A stretch of DNA of 64,000 nucleotides from Microbacterium sp. Leaf288. Lineage in GTDB: Bacteria; Actinomycetota; Actinomycetes; Actinomycetales; Microbacteriaceae. Numbering within the stretch: the stretch's first letter is position 1; each line of letters begins with the position of its first letter. A program made the position numbers and the translations under genes. The notes beneath the pieces are model-generated. The model did not search any database and had not been told where the DNA came from. It saw only the letters and a program-made list of their open reading frames with translations. Shown here one piece after another: positions 24,159 to 31,318 of the stretch. The DNA lies in assembly GCF_001422925.1 (NCBI RefSeq), contig NZ_LMNI01000012.1:248345-312344 (forward strand). Direction: 5' to 3'.

Positions 24159-25718
24159 TCAGGCCTCGATCGGCTCGACACCCGCGCGCGCGAAGGCGGC
24201 GGTGGCGGCATCCGTCGACTGCTCACGGTCGGTCTCGACGAGACCGAGGCGGGTACGCCGGTCGAGGAGGTCGGCGACGCTCAGGGCGCCCTCGACCGCG
24301 ACCCCCCACTGCAGCTCCTGGGCCGTCACGCCGCACGCGGCGGCCGGACCCTTCGGGAGGGCGGCGGCGTAGGGCGCCTCGGCACCGAACCGGCGCACCA
24401 GACGCGGCGCCGCGGCGATCTCGCCGAGACGGTGCCGCGGCCACGCGCCGACGAGCGGGATCGAACGCGTTCGCGACGGGCGGGAGGCGAACCCGGGGTC
24501 GCGCCGGATCACGGCATCGACGGCGTCCTCCGCCATCCGCCGGTACGTCGTGAGCTTGCCCCCGACGATGCTGAGCACGCCGCTGGAGGACTCGATGATC
24601 GCGTGACGGCGCGACAGGTCGCTGGTGTCGTGGTCGTCGCCGCCGGCGAGCAGCGGCCGCAGGCCGGCGAAGGTGGAGAGCACGTCGGCGCGGACGAGGG
24701 GCTCCTCCAGCACGGTGTTGACCGTGCCGAGGAGCATGTCGATCTCGGCCTCGGTCGCGTGCGCGACGTCGGGGATCGGCCCGTCGGCGGGCACGTCCGT
24801 GAGGCCGATGTAGGTGCGACCGTGCTGCGCCGGCAGAGTGAAGACGAAGCGGCTCGACGACCCGGGGACCGGCACGGTGAGCGACACGTCCGAACCGCCG
24901 AGGCGGGCCGTCGACACCACGAGGTGCGTGCCGCGGCTCGGCCGCAGGCGGACGTCGCGGTCGAGATCTCCCGCCCACACACCCGTCGCGCTCACGACGG
25001 CGCGCGCGTGCACATGGAGCGTCTCGCCCGTCACGAGGTCGCGCAGGGTCGCCTCGCGTCCGGTGACCGAGACGGCCTCGACACGGGTGAGGACGGATGC
25101 CCCGTACCCGGCGGCCGTCCGCGCGACGGCGACGACGAGCCGGGCGTCGTCGATGAGCTGTCCGTCCCAGCCCCGCACCCCGCCGCGGAGCCCCTCGGCG
25201 CGAACGGCGGGCGCGAGCGCGAGGGTGGCGTCGCGGCCGATCGGGCCGGGCGGCCGCAGCAGCGACCCGGGGGTTCCGACCGCGCGGCGCAGGCCGTCGC
25301 CGAGCTCGTAGCCCATGCCGATGTACGCACCGCGCGCGAGGTGCCCGGGGTCGTGCAGTGGCACGACCTGCGCCAGCGCGCGCGTGAGGTGCGGCGCCGT
25401 CCGGGTGAGGAGGATGTGACGCTCTGTCGCACTCTCGTGCGCGATCCCGATCTGGCCCGACGCGAGGTACCGCAGGCCGCCGTGCACGAGCTTGGAGCTG
25501 AAGCGGCTGGTGCCGTGCGCGAGGTCGTGCCGTTCGACCAGAACCGTGCGCAGGCCCCGGCTCGCGGCATCCAGCGCGATCCCGGCTCCGGTGATGCCGC
25601 CGCCGATGACGAGCACGTCGATCTCGCCGCGGTCGGCGAGTGCGTCGAGCTCGCGCGAGCGCCGGCCCGCCGAGAGCGCGGACGATCCGGGCGTGCGTCC
25701 CACGATGCGCGTCGTCAT
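24159..25718 (-). CDS. glpD: Glycerol-3-phosphate dehydrogenase, FAD-dependent
   Basis: A 519-residue flavoprotein oxidising sn-glycerol-3-phosphate to dihydroxyacetone phosphate at the membrane. The FAD-binding GGGITGAGIALDAASRGL is at about residues 38-56, followed by HDLAHGTSRFSSKLVHGGLRYL, which is diagnostic for GlpD. STFAGLRPLL and IVGGKLTTYRRMA mark the C-terminal half. The ATG overlaps the TetR stop by 4 nt, so the regulator and enzyme are co-translated. In this cluster its product, or the reverse reaction, may connect with the ADPS-like enzyme across the divergent promoter. The same gene order is found around mycobacterial glpD1. Confidence 0.92.
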   Translation of the reverse strand: MTTRIVGRTPGSSALSAGRRSRELDALADRGEIDVLVIGGGITGAGIALDAASRGLRTVLVERHDLAHGTSRFSSKLVHGGLRYLASGQIGIAHESATERHILLTRTAPHLTRALAQVVPLHDPGHLARGAYIGMGYELGDGLRRAVGTPGSLLRPPGPIGRDATLALAPAVRAEGLRGGVRGWDGQLIDDARLVVAVARTAAGYGASVLTRVEAVSVTGREATLRDLVTGETLHVHARAVVSATGVWAGDLDRDVRLRPSRGTHLVVSTARLGGSDVSLTVPVPGSSSRFVFTLPAQHGRTYIGLTDVPADGPIPDVAHATEAEIDMLLGTVNTVLEEPLVRADVLSTFAGLRPLLAGGDDHDTSDLSRRHAIIESSSGVLSIVGGKLTTYRRMAEDAVDAVIRRDPGFASRPSRTRSIPLVGAWPRHRLGEIAAAPRLVRRFGAEAPYAAALPKGPAAACGVTAQELQWGVAVEGALSVADLLDRRTRLGLVETDREQSTDAATAAFARAGVEPIEA

Positions 25719-26302
25719 CGCTGCTCCCCCACGGCCGGTGCGAGGTAGCCGCGCAGCGCGTGCACGAGTTCGGCGCGCCACGCGCCCTCGGGCAGCCACT
25801 CGGCGACGAGCGGCGCCGACTGCACCGCCGACTGCGCCACGAGCAGCACCATGGCCGCCAGCTGCGGCGGCTCGCCCGCGCGTACGAAGCCGGCACGCTG
25901 GCCCGCGGCGATGCGCCGGGCGGTCTCGGCGTGGATCGCCCGCTGGCTCGTGCCGAGCCGATCGAGGATGTACCGGGCGAACAGCTCGGGATCGGTGTCG
26001 CGGAGCCGGTCGACGAGGGGAAGACGTCGCACGCGGTCGGCGGTCTCGACGAGCAGTGCGACGAGCTCGCCGAGGTCGGCGGAATCCCCGGCCTCGGCGG
26101 GAAGCGCCGCGACGAGCTCGCGCGTCACGAGCGCGGCGAACACCGCCTGCGCGTCGGGCCAGTAGCGATAGAGCGTCTGGCGGGCGATCCCGCAGCGCCG
26201 TGCGATGTCGGAGGCCGTCGTCCGGCGGATGCCGTGCGCCAGCACCTCGGCGAGCGCGGCGTCGAGGATCGCGGTCTCGGTATCGGGCACTCCATCGGCC
26301 AT
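25715..26302 (-). CDS. TetR-family repressor of the glpD/ADPS-like cluster
   Basis: A 195-residue TetR/AcrR regulator. The N-terminal HTH is ILDAALAEVLAHGIRRTTASDIARRCGIARQTLYRYW (in parts), the usual three-helix DNA-binding domain; the C-terminal ligand-binding half is family-specific. It lies head-to-head with the ADPS-like gene across 34 nt that contain an inverted repeat overlapping both -10 boxes, so it probably represses both its own operon with glpD and the divergent operon. The inducer is unknown; a lipid or acyl-CoA would suit the neighbours. Confidence 0.85.
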   Translation of the reverse strand: MADGVPDTETAILDAALAEVLAHGIRRTTASDIARRCGIARQTLYRYWPDAQAVFAALVTRELVAALPAEAGDSADLGELVALLVETADRVRRLPLVDRLRDTDPELFARYILDRLGTSQRAIHAETARRIAAGQRAGFVRAGEPPQLAAMVLLVAQSAVQSAPLVAEWLPEGAWRAELVHALRGYLAPAVGEQR

Positions 26303-26303
26303 G

Positions 26304-26326
26304 TGACAACCATACAGAATGTGTCA
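26304..26326. promoter_or_regulatory. TetR operator overlapping divergent leaderless promoters
   Basis: TGACA (26304-26308) and TGTCA (26322-26326) form an inverted repeat in the 34 nt between the two start codons. The leftward -10 TATGGT (26309-26314, minus strand) ends 6 nt from ATG 26302. The rightward -10 CATACT (26325-26330) ends 6 nt from ATG 26337. A repressor bound here would cover both promoters. Confidence 0.6.
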
Positions 26327-26336
26327 TACTGTCGCC

Positions 26337-28001
26337 ATGGCTGCGACGGTGCCCACCGATCCCTCGAGCGACCCGGTGCGTCCGCTCGCCGTCCCGACGC
26401 CCCGCCCCCGCGGCGAGTGGGACGCCTGGGGGTCGGAGCCCGCGCGTCTGCCTACGGCCGCGAAGGCGATCGTCGCGACGCTGCTGCCGGGCAAGGCGCA
26501 CCCCGTTGCGCGCCGCACCGCGCCCGTCCTCACGCCCTCGCTGCTGCCCGACGGCGACCTCGCGGCACTGGCCGGCGTGGTCGGCGCCGACGCGGCGACG
26601 CGTGACGATGCGGTGCGCATGATGCACCTCGGGGGCAAGAGCACGCCCGACCTGCTGCGCCGCCGGCTCGACGACCTGCAGGCCGCTCCCGACGCGGTGG
26701 TCTCGCCCGCGGATCACTCCGAGGTCGCCGCCGTGCTCCGCGTGTGCGGCGAGCGCGGCATCGCCGTCGTGCCCTTCGGCGGGGGCACGTCGGTCGTAGG
26801 CGGCGTCGACCCCGTGCGCGGCGCGCAGCGCGCCGTGATCGCCCTCGACCTCAGCCGCACCGCGGCGCTCCTCGCGCTCGACGAGGTGGCGCTTCTCGCG
26901 ACGTTCGGCGCCGGCACGACCGGTCCTCAGGCCGAGGAGCTTCTCGGCACCCGCGGCTACACGCTCGGGCACTTCCCGCAGAGCTTCCTGTACGCCTCCC
27001 TCGGCGGGTACGCGGCGACGCGGTCGAGCGGCCAGGCCTCGCGCGGCTACGGCCGCTTCGACGACCTCGTCCACGCGCTGCGCGTCGCCACTCCGGCGGG
27101 AGACCTCGACCTCGGGCGCTCCCCCGCGAGCGCCGCCGGCCCCGACCTGCGCGAGCTGTTCCTGGGCTCGGAGGGCGCCTTCGGCGTCCTCACCGAGGTG
27201 ACCGTGCGGATCCGCCCGGTCCCCGCGGCGACCGCGTACCGCGCCTGGTCGTTCCCCGATTTCGCCGCGGGGGCGTCGGCGTTCCGCGAAGCCACGCAGC
27301 GCGGCATCCGTCCCACCGTCCTGCGGCTGAGCGACGAGACCGAGACGCGGGTGAACGCAGCGATGGGCGGGCACCTCACGCGGATGCGCGGATGCCTCGC
27401 CGTCGCCACCTTCGAGGGCGCGACGTCCGCCGAGGCCGAGGCGACACGCGATGCGCTCGACGCGGTCTTCCGCGCGCACGGCGCGACGTCGCGAGGTGAG
27501 GACCCGGCGCGGTCGTGGGAGCGCGGCCGCTTCGCCTCGCCCGCGCTGCGCGACACCCTCATGGACATCGGCGTCCTCGCCGAGACCCTCGAGACCGCGA
27601 CGACGTGGGCGAACCTGCCCGCCCTCAAGGCCGCGGTCACCGCCGCGCTCACCGCGAGCCTCGCCGCCGCAGGCACGAAGCCCCTCGTGCTGTGCCACAT
27701 CTCGCACGTGTACCCGGCGGGCGCGTCGCTCTACTTCACGGTGGTCGCCGCGCTCACCGACGATCCAGAGACCCAGTGGATGAGGGCGAAGGATGCCGCG
27801 TCCCGCGCGATCGGCGACGCCCACGGCACGATCACCCACCATCACGCCGTGGGGCGCGATCATCGGCCGTATCTCGAGGCCGAGATCGGACCCCTCGGCG
27901 TGCAGGTGCTGCGCGCGGTGAAGAACGTGCTCGACCCGCGCGGGATCATGAACCCCGGCGCACTGGTCGAACCGGCCGCCTCTGCGACGGAGCGCCCATG
28001 A
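26337..28001 (+). CDS. Alkyldihydroxyacetonephosphate synthase-like FAD-binding oxidase
   Basis: A 554-residue VAO-type flavoprotein. The FAD-binding PP-loop is in the N-terminal half (VVPFGGGTSVVGGVDP, about residues 142-157), with the GHFPQSFLYASLGGYAATRSSGQ segment. The C-terminal half carries the HHHAVGRDH motif characteristic of ADPS. True ADPS exchanges the acyl chain of acyl-DHAP for a fatty alcohol in ether lipid synthesis. The bacterial homologues (mycobacterial Rv2251 type) have no proven role. It overlaps the next gene, a diacylglycerol kinase, by 4 nt. Function as ether-lipid synthase is inferred. Confidence 0.82.
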   Translation: MAATVPTDPSSDPVRPLAVPTPRPRGEWDAWGSEPARLPTAAKAIVATLLPGKAHPVARRTAPVLTPSLLPDGDLAALAGVVGADAATRDDAVRMMHLGGKSTPDLLRRRLDDLQAAPDAVVSPADHSEVAAVLRVCGERGIAVVPFGGGTSVVGGVDPVRGAQRAVIALDLSRTAALLALDEVALLATFGAGTTGPQAEELLGTRGYTLGHFPQSFLYASLGGYAATRSSGQASRGYGRFDDLVHALRVATPAGDLDLGRSPASAAGPDLRELFLGSEGAFGVLTEVTVRIRPVPAATAYRAWSFPDFAAGASAFREATQRGIRPTVLRLSDETETRVNAAMGGHLTRMRGCLAVATFEGATSAEAEATRDALDAVFRAHGATSRGEDPARSWERGRFASPALRDTLMDIGVLAETLETATTWANLPALKAAVTAALTASLAAAGTKPLVLCHISHVYPAGASLYFTVVAALTDDPETQWMRAKDAASRAIGDAHGTITHHHAVGRDHRPYLEAEIGPLGVQVLRAVKNVLDPRGIMNPGALVEPAASATERP

Positions 28002-28903
28002 AGGTCGCGCTGCTCGTCAACCCCGCGGCGCGGGCAGGCGCCCACACCGGTGCCGCGACCAGCGCCGCCGAGCGCCTTCGCGCGCACGGCGTCCAGACGT
28101 CGATCCTGAGCGGTGGCAGCGCGGCGGAGTCGTCCGCACTCCTGCGGACCGCGATCGGGGTGGGCGTGGACGCGGTCGTCGTCGCCGGCGGCGACGGCAC
28201 CGTGAACCTCGCGATCCAGGAGGTCGCCGGCACCGGCATCCCGCTCGGCATCGTGCCGTCGGGCACCGGCAACGACTTCGCGGCGACGCTGGGGCTGCGC
28301 GAGCTCGACGCCACCGCGGCGGCCGACGCCATCGCCGCGGGCGTCACCCGGGCGATCGACCTGGCTCGCGTCACCCGCGAGGACGGATCGACGCGGTACT
28401 TCGGATCGGTGCTCGCGAGCGGGTTCGACTCCAAGGTCAACGACCGCGCCAACGCGATGCGCTGGCCGCGCGGCGGCTCGCGCTACAACATCGCGATCCT
28501 CGTCGAGTTCCTGACGCTCGCCGGCATCCCGTACGAGGTCGAGCTCGAACTCGCCGACGGCACGCGCGAACACGTGGGCGGCGACCTCGTGATGGCGACC
28601 GTCGGCAACGGGCGCACGTATGGCGGCGGCATCCCGATCTGTCCCGATGCCGACCCGGCCGACGGCCTGCTCGACGTCGTGCTCGTGCGTCCCGCCGGGA
28701 GACTGCGCCTGCTGCGGCTCCTCCCCCGGGTGTACAAGGGCACGCACGCGGGCGTGTCGGAGGTCGCGATGCGACGTGTGCGCTCGGTGCGGTTGTCGTC
28801 ACCGGGGGTCACGGCGTACGCCGACGGCGACCCGATCGGCGCGCTGCCTGTGACCGTCGACGTGGCGCCCGGCGCGCTCACGATCTTCACGCCCGCGGGG
28901 TGA
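27998..28903 (+). CDS. Diacylglycerol kinase-family lipid kinase
   Basis: A 301-residue lipid kinase of the DagK/YegS/sphingosine-kinase family. The ATP loop is VVVAGGDGTVNLAIQE (about residues 61-76), and GIVPSGTGNDFA and YGGGIPICPDADPADGLLDVV are the other conserved blocks. It would phosphorylate diacylglycerol to phosphatidic acid. Its mycobacterial counterpart Rv2252 has been linked to phosphatidylinositol mannoside synthesis. The ATG lies within the stop of the ADPS-like gene (ATGA), giving translational coupling. It converges with rsrA with only 17 nt between stops. Confidence 0.9.
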   Translation: MKVALLVNPAARAGAHTGAATSAAERLRAHGVQTSILSGGSAAESSALLRTAIGVGVDAVVVAGGDGTVNLAIQEVAGTGIPLGIVPSGTGNDFAATLGLRELDATAAADAIAAGVTRAIDLARVTREDGSTRYFGSVLASGFDSKVNDRANAMRWPRGGSRYNIAILVEFLTLAGIPYEVELELADGTREHVGGDLVMATVGNGRTYGGGIPICPDADPADGLLDVVLVRPAGRLRLLRLLPRVYKGTHAGVSEVAMRRVRSVRLSSPGVTAYADGDPIGALPVTVDVAPGALTIFTPAG

Positions 28904-28920: not shown

Positions 28921-29163
28921 TCAGTGCGCCGCCTGGACCGCCCGCAGCTTGGCCAGCACCTGATCCCGCAGCTCTTCGGGCGCGCTCTCCTTGCACGCCC
29001 GGGCGAGCACCTCGGTCAGCGTGGTCGCGACGAGCGCCTCGTCGCGGCAGCCCTCGCAGTTGGCCAGGTGCTCGGCGATGTCGCTCTGCTCGGTCTTGCA
29101 GACCTCGTGGCGCAGGTACTCCTCCAGGTCGCGCCGCGCCTTCTCACAGCCGCAGTCGGTCAT
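28921..29163 (-). CDS. rsrA: Zinc-binding redox anti-sigma factor RsrA
   Basis: An 80-residue ZAS anti-sigma factor that holds SigR inactive under reducing conditions and releases it when its thiols are oxidised. Zinc ligands Cys6, His32, Cys36 and Cys39 keep exactly the spacing of Streptomyces RsrA (Cys11, His37, Cys41, Cys44). Its ATG overlaps the sigR stop by 4 nt, so sigma factor and anti-sigma factor are made in a coupled way. Actinobacteria of this type control mycothiol and thioredoxin genes with the pair. Confidence 0.93.
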
Positions 29164-29777
29164 TTCGTGCTCCTCGTGGCGGCGGGGGTGATGCCGCGCT
29201 CTTTTGCGTAGTCGGCCAGCAGTTCACGCAGCATCCGCCTGCCACGATGCAGACGGCTCATGACCGTGCCGATGGGGGTCTTCATGATGTCGGCGATCTC
29301 CTGGTAGGCGAAGCCCTCGACGTCGGCGAGGTACACCGCCAGCCGGAAGTCCTCCGGGATGGACTGCAGCGCGTCCTTCACGACCGACGCGGGCATGTGG
29401 TCGATCGCCTCGGCCTCGGCCGAGCGGGTGCTCGTCGCGGTGGTCGACTCGGCACCGCCGAGCTGCCAGTCCTCGAGGTCGTCGATCGTGCCCTGATACG
29501 GCTCGCGCTGCTTCTTGCGGTAGGTGTTGATATAGGTGTTCGTCAGGATGCGGTACAGCCACGCCTTGAGGTTGGTGCCCTGCGTGAAGGTCTTCCACGA
29601 GGCGAACGCCTTGACGAAGGTCTCCTGCACGAGATCAGCCGCATCGGCGGGGTTGCGGGTCATGCGCATGGCCGCGGCGTACAGCTGGTCCATGAAGGGC
29701 AGCGCCTGCTCTTCGAACTGCGCGCGGGGATCCTGATCGCGGTCCGCCTCGGCAGCCTGGTCGGTCGAGTCGCTCAT
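29160..29777 (-). CDS. sigR: ECF sigma factor SigR/SigH
   Basis: A 205-residue group IV sigma factor of the disulfide-stress type (SigR in Streptomyces, SigH in Mycobacterium). Region 2 contains [15 protein letters not shown] and [21 protein letters not shown]; region 4 has [33 protein letters not shown]. The acidic linker between them is family-like. ATG 29777 or the GTG at 29780 could be the start. TAGACT lies just upstream. I do not see a convincing SigR-type GGAAT/GTT promoter in front of the gene, so autoregulation cannot be claimed from this sequence. Confidence 0.92.
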
Positions 29778-29785
29778 CACGCGCC

Positions 29786-29813
29786 AGTCTACGGCGGCCT
29801 GTTCCAGGCCGCC
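29786..29813 (-). promoter_or_regulatory. sigR promoter region: -10 TAGACT and a 9-bp inverted repeat
   Basis: On the minus strand TAGACT (29786-29791) ends 5 nt before GTG 29780 or 8 nt before ATG 29777. Directly upstream a perfect repeat pairs GGCGGCCTG (29793-29801) with CAGGCCGCC (29805-29813), sitting where RNA polymerase would bind between -10 and -35. It may be an operator. Confidence 0.4.
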
Positions 29814-29930
29814 TGAAAGAGGCGCGTCGCGCTCTGCGAGGAGGGGCGCCTCACGATCGAGACGCTCGAGGGTGGCGAACATCCGGCTCCGCTCAGTAGG
29901 TTGCTCCCGGCTCGTGCCCACCGGGTTCAG

Positions 29931-29936
29931 TAGGGT
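29931..29936 (+). promoter_or_regulatory. -10 box TAGGGT of aroA
   Basis: TAGGGT ends 8 nt before ATG 29945, close to the leaderless spacing seen elsewhere in the window. Confidence 0.4.
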
Positions 29937-29944
29937 AGAACCCG

Positions 29945-31318
29945 ATGACAGCCGACGCGTATTCCCCGCCCTCCGCGCCGATCGAGCGCGGCCCCTGGCC
30001 CGCGCCTGTCGCGGACGGAGCACTGCACGCCACGGTGACCGTCCCCGGGTCGAAATCGCTGACGAACCGGGAGCTGATCCTGGCCGCCCTCGCGGACGCC
30101 CCGAGCCGCCTGATCGCGCCGCTGCACTCCGACGACTCCGCCCGCATGATCGACGCGCTGCGCTCGCTCGGCGTCGGCATCGAGCTCGTCGAAGGCAACG
30201 GACTGTACGGCGACGACATCGAGGTGACACCGGTGTGGCCGCTGCGCGGCGACACCGTCGTGGACTGCGGGCAGGCGGGCACCGTCATGCGGTTCGTGGC
30301 CGGCCTCGGGGGCTTCGCCCGCGGCGACGTCACCCTCACGGCGCACGAGAGCGCGCTGCACCGCCCGATGGGCGCCATGATCACGGCGCTCCGCGACGTC
30401 GGCGTCGACATCGACGACGGCGGCCACTGGGCGCTCCCGTTCATCATCCGCGGCCACGGCCACGTCCGCGGCGGCGAGGTGACGATCGACGCCAGCGCGT
30501 CGAGCCAGTTCGTCTCCGGTCTCCTGCTCGCGGCGCCGCGCTTCGACGTCGGGCTGCAGCTGCGTCACGCCGGCGAGCGGCTGCCGAGCATCCCGCACAT
30601 CGACATGACCGTCGAAGCCCTCGGGCACCGCGGCGTGCACGTCGAGCGCCCAGGCGTGGGCGAGTGGATCGTGCCGGCCGGTCCGATCCGCGGCAAGGAC
30701 GTCGCGATCGAGCCCGACCTCTCGAACGCAGCGCCGTTCCTGGCTGCGGCCATGGTGGCCGGCGGTGCGGTGTCGGTCACCGGCTGGCCCGCGCACTCCA
30801 CCCAGCCGGGCGCGATGCTCACCGAGATCCTGTCGCTCATGGGCGCCCGCGTGGTGCGCCGCGGCGGCGCGCTCACCGTGACCGCCGGAGCCGGCATCCA
30901 GGGGGTCGATCTCGATCTGTCGGCCGCCGGCGAGCTGACGCCCACCATCTTCGCGCTCGCCGCCTTCGCGGACTCCCCCTCGACCCTGCACGGCATCGGT
31001 CACATCCGCGGCCACGAGACCGACCGCATCGCGGCGCTCGTCGCCGAGCTGCGCGGCCTCGGCGGCGAGGCCGAGGAGCTGCCCGACGGCATCCGCATCG
31101 TCCCCCGCCCTCTCCACGGCGGAACCTGGCACGCGTACCACGACCACCGCATGGCGACCACGGGCGCCCTGATCGGCCTGGCCGTGCCCGGGGTCGAGGT
31201 CGACGACATCGGCACGACCGCGAAGACCATGCCCGAGTTCCCGCAGATCTGGCAGCGGATGCTCGACGGCGAGCACGCCGACGGCGGGGTCTCCGAGGAG
31301 ACGATGCGCGTCTCGTGA
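29945..31318 (+). CDS. aroA: 3-phosphoshikimate 1-carboxyvinyltransferase (EPSP synthase)
   Basis: A 457-residue cytoplasmic enzyme joining PEP to shikimate-3-phosphate in the chorismate pathway. The N-terminal [18 protein letters not shown] binds shikimate-3-phosphate, [10 protein letters not shown] is the PEP loop, and [14 protein letters not shown] with the C-terminal [14 protein letters not shown] complete the two inverse domains. In CGQAGT the residue after the glycine-alanine loop start differs from the common GNAGT (Gln replaces Asn). Directly followed by rsgA, as in most actinobacteria. Confidence 0.95.

What the first reader, a model, noticed from the sequence alone, without database searches (positions are those of the whole stretch)
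24159..28903. Conserved glpD-tetR / ADPS-like-dagK cluster, a possible ether-lipid or envelope-lipid module
Gene order, orientation and overlaps match what I recall of mycobacterial Rv2249c-Rv2252. An ADPS-like enzyme with the HHH motif, a G3P dehydrogenase and a lipid kinase sharing one control region suggest a DHAP/G3P-based lipid branch. Ether lipids are not generally described in Microbacterium.
Basis: partly seen in the sequence, partly recalled or inferred. Interest (0 to 1): 0.5.

Follow-up and report, generated by a model that had tools for sequence, protein, structure and literature searches.

The report
Paired flavoenzymes acting on ether lipids
A four-gene bacterial cluster has at its core two enzymes, relatives of a glycerol-3-phosphate dehydrogenase and of the human ether-lipid enzyme AGPS, that come and go together as a switchable unit; they probably make or, more likely, break the ether bond of fat-like molecules, which has not been tested.

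Summary
In detail: glpD-like and tetR (- strand) face an AGPS-like gene and dagK (+ strand), with 4-bp overlaps and a 34-bp shared control region. The AGPS-like protein is AGPS-type by sequence, predicted fold and active site (R330, R405, Y466, HHH501-503).

The core is narrower than claimed. In 149 genomes of the genus, this AGPS and this GlpD occur in the same 62; 21 others keep dagK at the same site without the pair. TetR is dispensable: six genomes lack it, together with its putative operator. GlpD lies within 1.5 kb of AGPS in 54 of 64 named loci with enough flank, and in other arrangements in Chloroflexota, Acidobacteriota and Thermoplasmatota MAGs. The closest published system is the Pseudomonas aeruginosa GliR operon.

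Ether-lipid synthesis is not the best reading. The 62 genomes have no strong fatty-acyl reductase hit, whereas two genomes of the genus with another AGPS carry one beside it. A GMC oxidoreductase is co-inherited with the cassette in one lineage, and AGPS relatives sit in apparent polyether-degradation plasmid operons. I favour ether-lipid cleavage: GlpD oxidises C2, AGPS runs in reverse. Direction and substrate are inferred, not shown.

The parts
24159..25718 (-). GlpD-like FAD-dependent glycerol-3-phosphate dehydrogenase relative (GlpD1), 519 aa; residues aligned to E. coli GlpD R54, Y55, H233, R317, R332, K354 kept; GTTD motif changed to GLTD
   Evidence: present in the same 62 genomes as AGPS
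25715..26302 (-). TetR-family regulator, 195 aa, 4-bp overlap with glpD
   Evidence: present in 56 of the 62 cassette genomes
26303..26336 (.). 34-bp divergent control region: TGACA (26304-26308), 13 bases, TGTCA (26322-26326), putative operator, and ATACTG (-10-like) just before the agps start
   Evidence: element (pattern chosen after seeing the sequences) in 41 of 45 tetR+ loci, 0 of 7 tetR- loci
26337..28001 (+). AGPS-like (alkyldihydroxyacetonephosphate synthase-type) flavoenzyme, 554 aa; R330, R405, Y466, H501-H503 align with guinea-pig R419, R515, Y578, H615-H617
27998..28903 (+). DagK/YegS-type lipid kinase, 301 aa, 4-bp overlap with agps; also kept without the cassette in other genomes

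Best explanation
A TetR-switched lipid module whose core is two flavoenzymes sharing a 1-O-substituted DHAP intermediate. I think it most likely breaks ether glycerolipids: (1) DagK or another kinase, where needed, phosphorylates an alkylglycerol to 1-alkyl-G3P; (2) GlpD1 oxidises the C2 hydroxyl to the ketone, giving 1-alkyl-DHAP, with electrons to FAD and then probably quinone; (3) the ketone activates C1 so that the AGPS-type flavoenzyme exchanges the alkoxide for a carboxylate or water (AGPS chemistry in reverse), releasing a fatty alcohol and acyl-DHAP or DHAP; (4) in the type-B lineage a co-inherited GMC oxidoreductase may take up the alcohol. TetR represses both arms until a lipid ligand appears. 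Shown here: gene structure, AGPS-type fold and active site (predicted and aligned), GlpD-AGPS pairing in the genus, the triplet present or absent as a unit, joint absence of TetR and operator-like element. Inferred: substrate, reaction direction, electron acceptor, roles of DagK and GMC, repression, TetR ligand.
For: AGPS identity: best PDB sequence matches are AGPS (3.6e-75, 1.4e-58) before D-lactate dehydrogenase (2.4e-34); the model (pLDDT 84) ranks 37 AGPS chains before any other protein; R419/R515/Y578/HHH equivalents kept, whereas the two own-genome GlcD-like paralogues aligned have E, A/M, H/N and GEH. R515 is kept as in AGPS but is Met in three plasmid enzymes of polyether-type context, which fits a phosphate-bearing substrate (the role of R515 is my inference). 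Pairing: same 62 of 149 genomes; dagK at the same site without glpD-tetR-agps in 14 type-A and 7 type-B genomes; GlpD within 1.5 kb of AGPS in 54 of 64 named loci with 2.6 kb on both sides, and on the same strand as AGPS in L148, L216, L227, L243, L245, L253; the whole four-gene cluster also on a Tsukamurella plasmid. Direction: GlpD is an oxidising enzyme (established knowledge), while synthesis needs a reductase; no FAR-family hit of 160 bits or more in the 62 genomes versus FAR beside the other AGPS in G360, G410 and L249; GMC after dagK in 30 of 32 type-B genomes with the cassette versus 1 of 7 without; AGPS-like genes on plasmids of a PEG/PPG degrader, of a Xanthobacter named for dioxane and of an Aminobacter, beside GST and CoA-ligase-type genes; the P. 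aeruginosa GliR regulon joins a similarly annotated gene set to a phospholipase C (PMC8151288, passages).
Against: No substrate, product or phenotype is known. The FAR contrast is not significant by itself (0 of 62 vs 4 of 87, p 0.14); the family cut-off itself is passed in 146 of 149 genomes and in all 14 controls, so the 160-bit line was drawn after seeing the list; fatty alcohol could come from other enzymes or from outside. I know of no measured reverse reaction of AGPS. GMC occurs at the cluster only in one lineage, is cholesterol-oxidase-like below cut-off, and is barely similar to the GMC of the Aminobacter plasmid. DagK is inherited independently. Two GlpD-linked AGPS relatives, L148 and L149, lack the R515 equivalent (Q, F), against my use of that residue. 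Ten of 64 named loci have AGPS without adjacent GlpD, as do most of the more distant unnamed loci. Of the 8 plasmid loci opened (of 25), four have neither the polyether-type genes nor the cluster. Deletion of the P. aeruginosa operon gave no growth phenotype on the media tried, and its authors drew the pathway in the synthetic direction (PMC8151288).
Confidence: 0.42

Rival explanations
1. Ether-lipid synthesis, as the first reader and the GliR paper suggest: GlpD1 supplies DHAP (or oxidises 1-acyl-G3P straight to acyl-DHAP), AGPS swaps the acyl for an alkyl group, another reductase makes alkyl-G3P, and DagK feeds a phosphatidic-acid-type lipid.
For: AGPS active site complete; PMC8151288 maps PA3026-PA3024 to glycerol -> alkylglycerone phosphate; [quoted passage not shown] a FAR-linked AGPS exists in the same genus.
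Against: No FAR-family hit of 160 bits or more in the 62 cassette genomes; no SDR or acyltransferase among the four genes; an oxidative GlpD would run against the needed reduction; the FAR-linked AGPS is a separate branch (100/100) and its two genomes in the genus lack this GlpD.
Confidence: 0.28
2. Acyl-DHAP/lysophosphatidate handling without ethers: GlpD1 oxidises 1-acyl-G3P or G3P, and the AGPS-like enzyme exchanges or hydrolyses the acyl group, so the pair recycles membrane ester lipids through DHAP.
For: GlpD1 keeps the G3P-binding residues checked; a glycerol-kinase-like gene lies near the GlpD-AGPS pair in L148; phospholipase C is in the GliR regulon.
Against: Does not explain why an AGPS-type catalyst rather than an esterase is needed, nor the GMC oxidoreductase.
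Confidence: 0.17
3. The AGPS-like protein is a plain dehydrogenase of a hydroxy-acid or polyol (D-LDH/GlcD-like) and GlpD1 simply oxidises G3P; the cluster is a glycerol/hydroxy-acid catabolic unit.
For: Same superfamily; a cysteine-rich, GlcF-like gene follows the AGPS relative in L149; AGPS relatives lie beside oxidation genes on some plasmids.
Against: AGPS chains rank above all D-LDH in sequence and fold; R419, Y578 and HHH equivalents kept, whereas the two own-genome GlcD-like paralogues aligned have E, H/N and GEH.
Confidence: 0.1

Closest known systems
GliR regulon of Pseudomonas aeruginosa: PA3026 (FAD oxidoreductase), PA3025 (GlpD homologue), PA3024 (FGGY kinase), PA3023 (YegS lipid kinase), plus PA3464 phospholipase C (PMC8151288; abstract, outline and passages seen)
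   Same: Candidate for the AGPS step + GlpD homologue + DagK/YegS-type kinase next to a dedicated, divergently transcribed regulator; authors place it in glycerolipid metabolism.
   Different: AraC activator instead of TetR, extra FGGY kinase, phospholipase C in the regulon; its authors found the set in a very limited number of strains, whereas GlpD-AGPS pairing here is widespread in Actinomycetota. I did not see or compare the PA3026 sequence.
Mycobacterial Rv2249c (glpD1)-Rv2252 (diacylglycerol kinase) locus
   Same: Same order and orientation in the Mycobacterium loci read; Rv2249c = glpD1 (PMC4866775, passages); Rv2252 = diacylglycerol kinase (title of Owens et al. in a reference list). 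Rv2250c/Rv2251 identities are recalled.
   Different: AGPS 55-60% identical in the named Mycobacterium loci. Six papers mention Rv2251; I saw only that listing, so I cannot say whether a function is in print.
Eukaryotic AGPS/ADPS (EC 2.5.1.26), PDB 2uuu, 4bby; mechanism review PMC3509576 (passages)
   Same: Fold, FAD domains, R419/R515/Y578/HHH equivalents.
   Different: 24-27% identity in the structural alignments; separate branch; neighbours are GlpD, TetR and DagK.
Myxococcus MXAN_1676-1674 (AGPS, FAR1-GNPAT-like, NAD-dependent protein; PMC9131029, passages)
   Same: Bacterial AGPS homologue in an operon.
   Different: Has FAR and acyltransferase partners; resembles the FAR-linked clusters L109/L173/L249, not the window.
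PEG carboxylate dehydrogenase (PCDH) of Sphingopyxis (PMC7299911, passages)
   Same: Described as ether-cleaving; an HHH-bearing AGPS relative next to a GST gene lies on the S. macrogoltabida EY-1 plasmid. That this gene is PCDH is my inference.
   Different: R515 equivalent is Met; substrate lacks phosphate; no GlpD in the stretch read.

Membership tests
AGPS (alkylglycerone-phosphate synthase) | Best relatives are AGPS by sequence and fold | tested here: met
AGPS (alkylglycerone-phosphate synthase) | Active-site R419, R515, Y578, HHH 615-617 (guinea-pig numbering; Arg419His and Tyr578Phe mutants are titles, the rest recalled) | tested here: met
   window R330, R405, Y466, H501-503
AGPS (alkylglycerone-phosphate synthase) | Forms alkyl-DHAP from acyl-DHAP and fatty alcohol | not testable with these tools
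   needs enzymology
AGPS (alkylglycerone-phosphate synthase) | Clade with experimentally known AGPS | tested here: inconclusive
   window clade (37 rows, 98/92) is separate from the weakly supported group (92/45) holding the eukaryotic rows
Ether-lipid biosynthetic cluster (Myxococcus-type) | Fatty-acyl reductase in cluster or genome | tested here: not met
   no PF07993 hit of 160 bits or more in the 62 genomes; own best 8.6e-12; the line was drawn after seeing the list
Ether-lipid biosynthetic cluster (Myxococcus-type) | Alkyl-DHAP reductase and GNPAT-like acyltransferase in cluster | tested here: not met
   the four Pfam architectures include none; elsewhere in the genome not tested
GlpD (aerobic G3P dehydrogenase) | G3P-binding residues (R54, Y55, H233, R317, R332, K354; roles recalled) | tested here: met
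   kept in the 114 GlpD1 rows wherever a letter is aligned, but for one A at 233 and one R at 354
GlpD (aerobic G3P dehydrogenase) | NCBIfam GlpD equivalog score | tested here: not met
   243 vs cut-off 360
DagK/YegS lipid kinase | DAGK_cat + YegS_C and diacylglycerol-kinase equivalog score | tested here: met
GliR-type glycerolipid operon | AGPS-like + GlpD-like + lipid kinase beside one regulator | tested here: met
   regulator family differs (TetR, not AraC); orthology to PA3026-PA3023 not tested

The most novel reading that the evidence does not exclude
The GlpD-AGPS pair is an oxygenase-free ether-lipid cleavage pathway: oxidation of C2 of alkyl-G3P by a specialised GlpD, then an AGPS-type flavoenzyme run in reverse to free the alkyl chain; widespread in Actinomycetota (mycobacteria and streptomycetes included) and, with other regulators, in other phyla.
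Probability: 0.4. Interest if true: 0.82.

Novelty: new variant of a known kind. Interest (0 to 1): 0.58.

Why it matters
[quoted passage not shown] A bacterial two-flavoenzyme route would be a second solution, would give a function to an orphan locus shared by Microbacterium, Mycobacterium and Streptomyces, and would show AGPS chemistry used backwards. Even if the direction is synthetic, the GlpD-AGPS pairing defines a testable unit and warns against reading bacterial AGPS homologues as proof of ether-lipid synthesis, as environmental screens tend to do (PMC11868695, passages, which itself notes that genomic potential and lipid detection can differ).

Tried and rejected
Rejected: a strictly four-gene module (dagK and tetR are separable). 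Rejected as a discriminator: the HHH motif; it is also in the eight plasmid AGPS relatives read and in FAR-linked AGPS, so it cannot tell synthesis from cleavage. Tried: specificity positions in GlpD1; of the positions that differ, GTTD->GLTD is the one I judged nearest the active site (105 L and 5 I of 110 GlpD1 rows with letters there; the five AGPS-linked GlpD from other lineages keep T), and substrate cannot be read from it. Tried: other neighbours for clues; those scanned beside AGPS of other lineages were housekeeping or lineage-specific genes, no recurrent lipid partner. Tried: Pfam check of one of six 67-81-bit FAR-like hits in type-B genomes (G355): an SDR-alpha/beta-hydrolase fusion; the other five were not checked. 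Literature searches: in the listings and passages that I saw, the GliR paper is the only direct parallel; the library holds open-licence papers only, and most listed papers were not opened. A second structure prediction (GlpD1) was not run.
Full report
WHAT IS THERE. Four genes: glpD-like 24159-25718 (-), tetR 25715-26302 (-), AGPS-like 26337-28001 (+), dagK 27998-28903 (+), with ATGA overlaps inside each pair and 34 bp between the divergent pairs. The own genome has a second GlpD relative (37% identity over residues 13-425), two weaker DagK paralogues and five FAD-oxidase_C proteins, of which only the window's showed the HHH motif.

THE AGPS-LIKE PROTEIN. By sequence its best solved relatives are Dictyostelium and guinea-pig AGPS, then D-lactate dehydrogenase. 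An AlphaFold2 model from an alignment of 23 sequences (pLDDT 84.0, pTM 0.85) ranks 37 AGPS chains before the first D-LDH. Guinea-pig R419, R515, Y578 and H615-617 align with window R330, R405, Y466 and H501-503; the two GlcD-like paralogues that were aligned have other residues except the last His. So AGPS-type chemistry (oxidised flavin holding a DHAP adduct, ping-pong exchange of acyl for alkyl; PMC3509576, passages) is likely; direction and substrate are open.

THE CORE IS A PAIR. Among 149 genomes of the genus, 65 have an AGPS match at 1e-60, of which 62 are of the cluster type (30 type A, 71-100% identity; 32 type B, 52-56%) and three are distant (37-38%). GlpD1 at 1e-80 is in those same 62. 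DagK at 1e-35 is in the 62 and in 21 more. TetR at 1e-16 is in 56 of the 62. In the 21 genomes with dagK alone, dagK stands beside the same flanking genes as in cassette genomes and the glpD-tetR-agps triplet is not found: 14 type-A loci (upstream neighbour found in 14, the gene of the small protein on the other side in 13) and 7 type-B loci (both neighbours in 7). No genome has both types. The triplet is therefore a cassette present or absent as a unit beside a resident dagK.

WIDER CONSERVATION. Of the 64 with 2.6 kb on both sides, GlpD lies within 1.5 kb of AGPS in 54, TetR near it in 42 (never without GlpD), DagK in 27, all four in 25. GlpD and AGPS are also neighbours on the same strand in Planosporangium (L216), Solirubrobacteraceae (L227), a Chloroflexota MAG (L243), a Thermoplasmatota MAG (L245), a Thermoanaerobaculales MAG (L253) and, with a glycerol-kinase-like gene nearby, in unnamed L148. 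MAG assignments are the records' own. A Tsukamurella plasmid carries all four genes in the window's order. In the AGPS tree the actinobacterial cluster proteins fall in one clade (37 rows, 98/92), which also holds some members without adjacent GlpD; L148, L149, L243, L245 and L253 lie outside it (L253 and L148 are long or sparse rows), so pairing is either old or repeatedly formed. In the phylum sample 121 of 296 genomes have an AGPS match at 1e-30, and most of the less similar loci that I fetched (L121-L149) have no GlpD next door.

REGULATION. The region between tetR and agps holds TGACA-N13-TGTCA followed by ATACTG and the start codon. A pattern chosen after seeing these sequences matches 41 of 45 tetR+ loci (many of them close relatives) and none of 7 tetR- loci; mononucleotide shuffles match in 0.26%. 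Six Microbacterium genomes have no tetR hit and no such element but keep an ATACTG before agps, which fits loss of the repressor together with its operator.

WHICH DIRECTION. Synthesis by AGPS needs fatty alcohol. The family that holds fatty-acyl reductases, PF07993, passes its cut-off in 146 of 149 genomes and in all 14 controls because common epimerases match it; hits of 160 bits or more, a line I drew after seeing the list, are in four of 149 genomes and in none of the 62; own best E 8.6e-12. Two of the four, G360 and G410, are genomes with a distant AGPS. In G360 (L109) a FAR fused to a HAD domain, a 268-aa protein, an SDR, AGPS, a TetR and a DagK relative lie together; G410 (L173) has the same FAR, 268-aa protein, SDR and AGPS, and Phytoactinopolyspora (L249) has relatives of these beside its AGPS. 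These AGPS form a separate branch (100/100), and G360 and G410 lack GlpD1. The 0 of 62 versus 4 of 87 contrast alone is not significant (p 0.14). In type B a GMC oxidoreductase (cholesterol-oxidase-like, below cut-off) follows dagK in 30 of 32 genomes with the cassette and 1 of 7 without (p 6e-5 ignoring relatedness). Of 25 plasmid records with an AGPS relative I opened eight. Three, from Xanthobacter dioxanivorans, Aminobacter and the PEG/PPG degrader Sphingopyxis macrogoltabida EY-1, have it beside GST and CoA-ligase-type genes (aldehyde dehydrogenase too in the first two); one is the Tsukamurella cluster; four have other contexts. Passages in the literature describe a PEG-carboxylate dehydrogenase of S. 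macrogoltabida as ether-cleaving and tie GST to PEG metabolism (PMC7299911, PMC6987047, PMC12696187). I infer, but did not verify, that these are the same genes. The three plasmid enzymes of that type have Met where AGPS has R515, while the window enzyme keeps the Arg; against this, GlpD-linked L148 and L149 also lack it. The GlpD site for G3P is intact, so GlpD1 should oxidise a G3P-type C2 hydroxyl, the opposite of what a synthetic route needs after AGPS.

READING. Oxidation of C2 makes the ketone that AGPS chemistry requires; the pair as an ether-cleaving unit explains why GlpD and AGPS go together, why no FAR is seen, why the system looks repressed, and why a GMC oxidoreductase travels with it in one lineage. 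The same pieces can be drawn as synthesis, as Kotecka and colleagues did for P. aeruginosa PA3026-PA3024, where deletion had no growth phenotype on the media tried (PMC8151288, passages). I put cleavage at 0.42, synthesis at 0.28, ester-lipid recycling at 0.17, plain dehydrogenase at 0.10.

LIMITS. Presence/absence counts ignore relatedness, and the genome lists were compared by eye. Gene calls in fetched loci are ORF- and homology-based. DagK and TetR counts in distant loci may be low because the queries were few. Roles of E. coli GlpD residues, of AGPS R515 and the HHH motif, and the Rv2250c/Rv2251 labels are recalled. No biochemical evidence exists in this work.

Noticed in passing
L109, L173 (G360, G410) and L249: A FAR-HAD fusion, 268-aa protein and SDR beside AGPS in two genomes of the genus, with relatives in Phytoactinopolyspora: a likely true ether-lipid biosynthetic cluster in Actinomycetota.
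   Followed up: partly
L254, L255, L260 (plasmids): AGPS relatives with HHH but Met in place of R515 sit with GST and CoA-ligase-type genes on plasmids of a polyether degrader and two other bacteria; possibly the PEG-carboxylate dehydrogenase family.
   Followed up: partly
L259:4587-7392 and L255:12681-13625 (plasmids): A 'sterol desaturase family' gene lies next to, or near, the AGPS relative on a Rhodococcus and a Sphingopyxis plasmid; from memory, alkylglycerol monooxygenase belongs to that superfamily.
   Followed up: no
L258 (Tsukamurella tyrosinosolvens plasmid): The whole glpD-tetR/agps-dagK cluster is carried on a 148-kb plasmid, so it can move between strains.
   Followed up: no
L076, L077, L078, L080, L082, L096: Six genomes of the genus show neither tetR nor its putative operator but keep glpD1 and agps: probable constitutive expression.
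   Followed up: yes
window 28921-30230 (-): An 80-aa protein (no Pfam hit; RsrA-like anti-sigma by my guess from position) and a sigma-70-region-2/4 sigma factor directly downstream of dagK, kept at this site in most type-A loci with or without the cassette.
   Followed up: partly
L149 (unnamed, f69): AGPS relative followed by a GlcF-like cysteine-rich protein and a DagK, with GlpD nearby; suggests an electron-transfer partner in this lineage.
   Followed up: no
L098 (G385): The cassette is broken into several frames in this genome (68% complete assembly); may be sequencing error.
   Followed up: no
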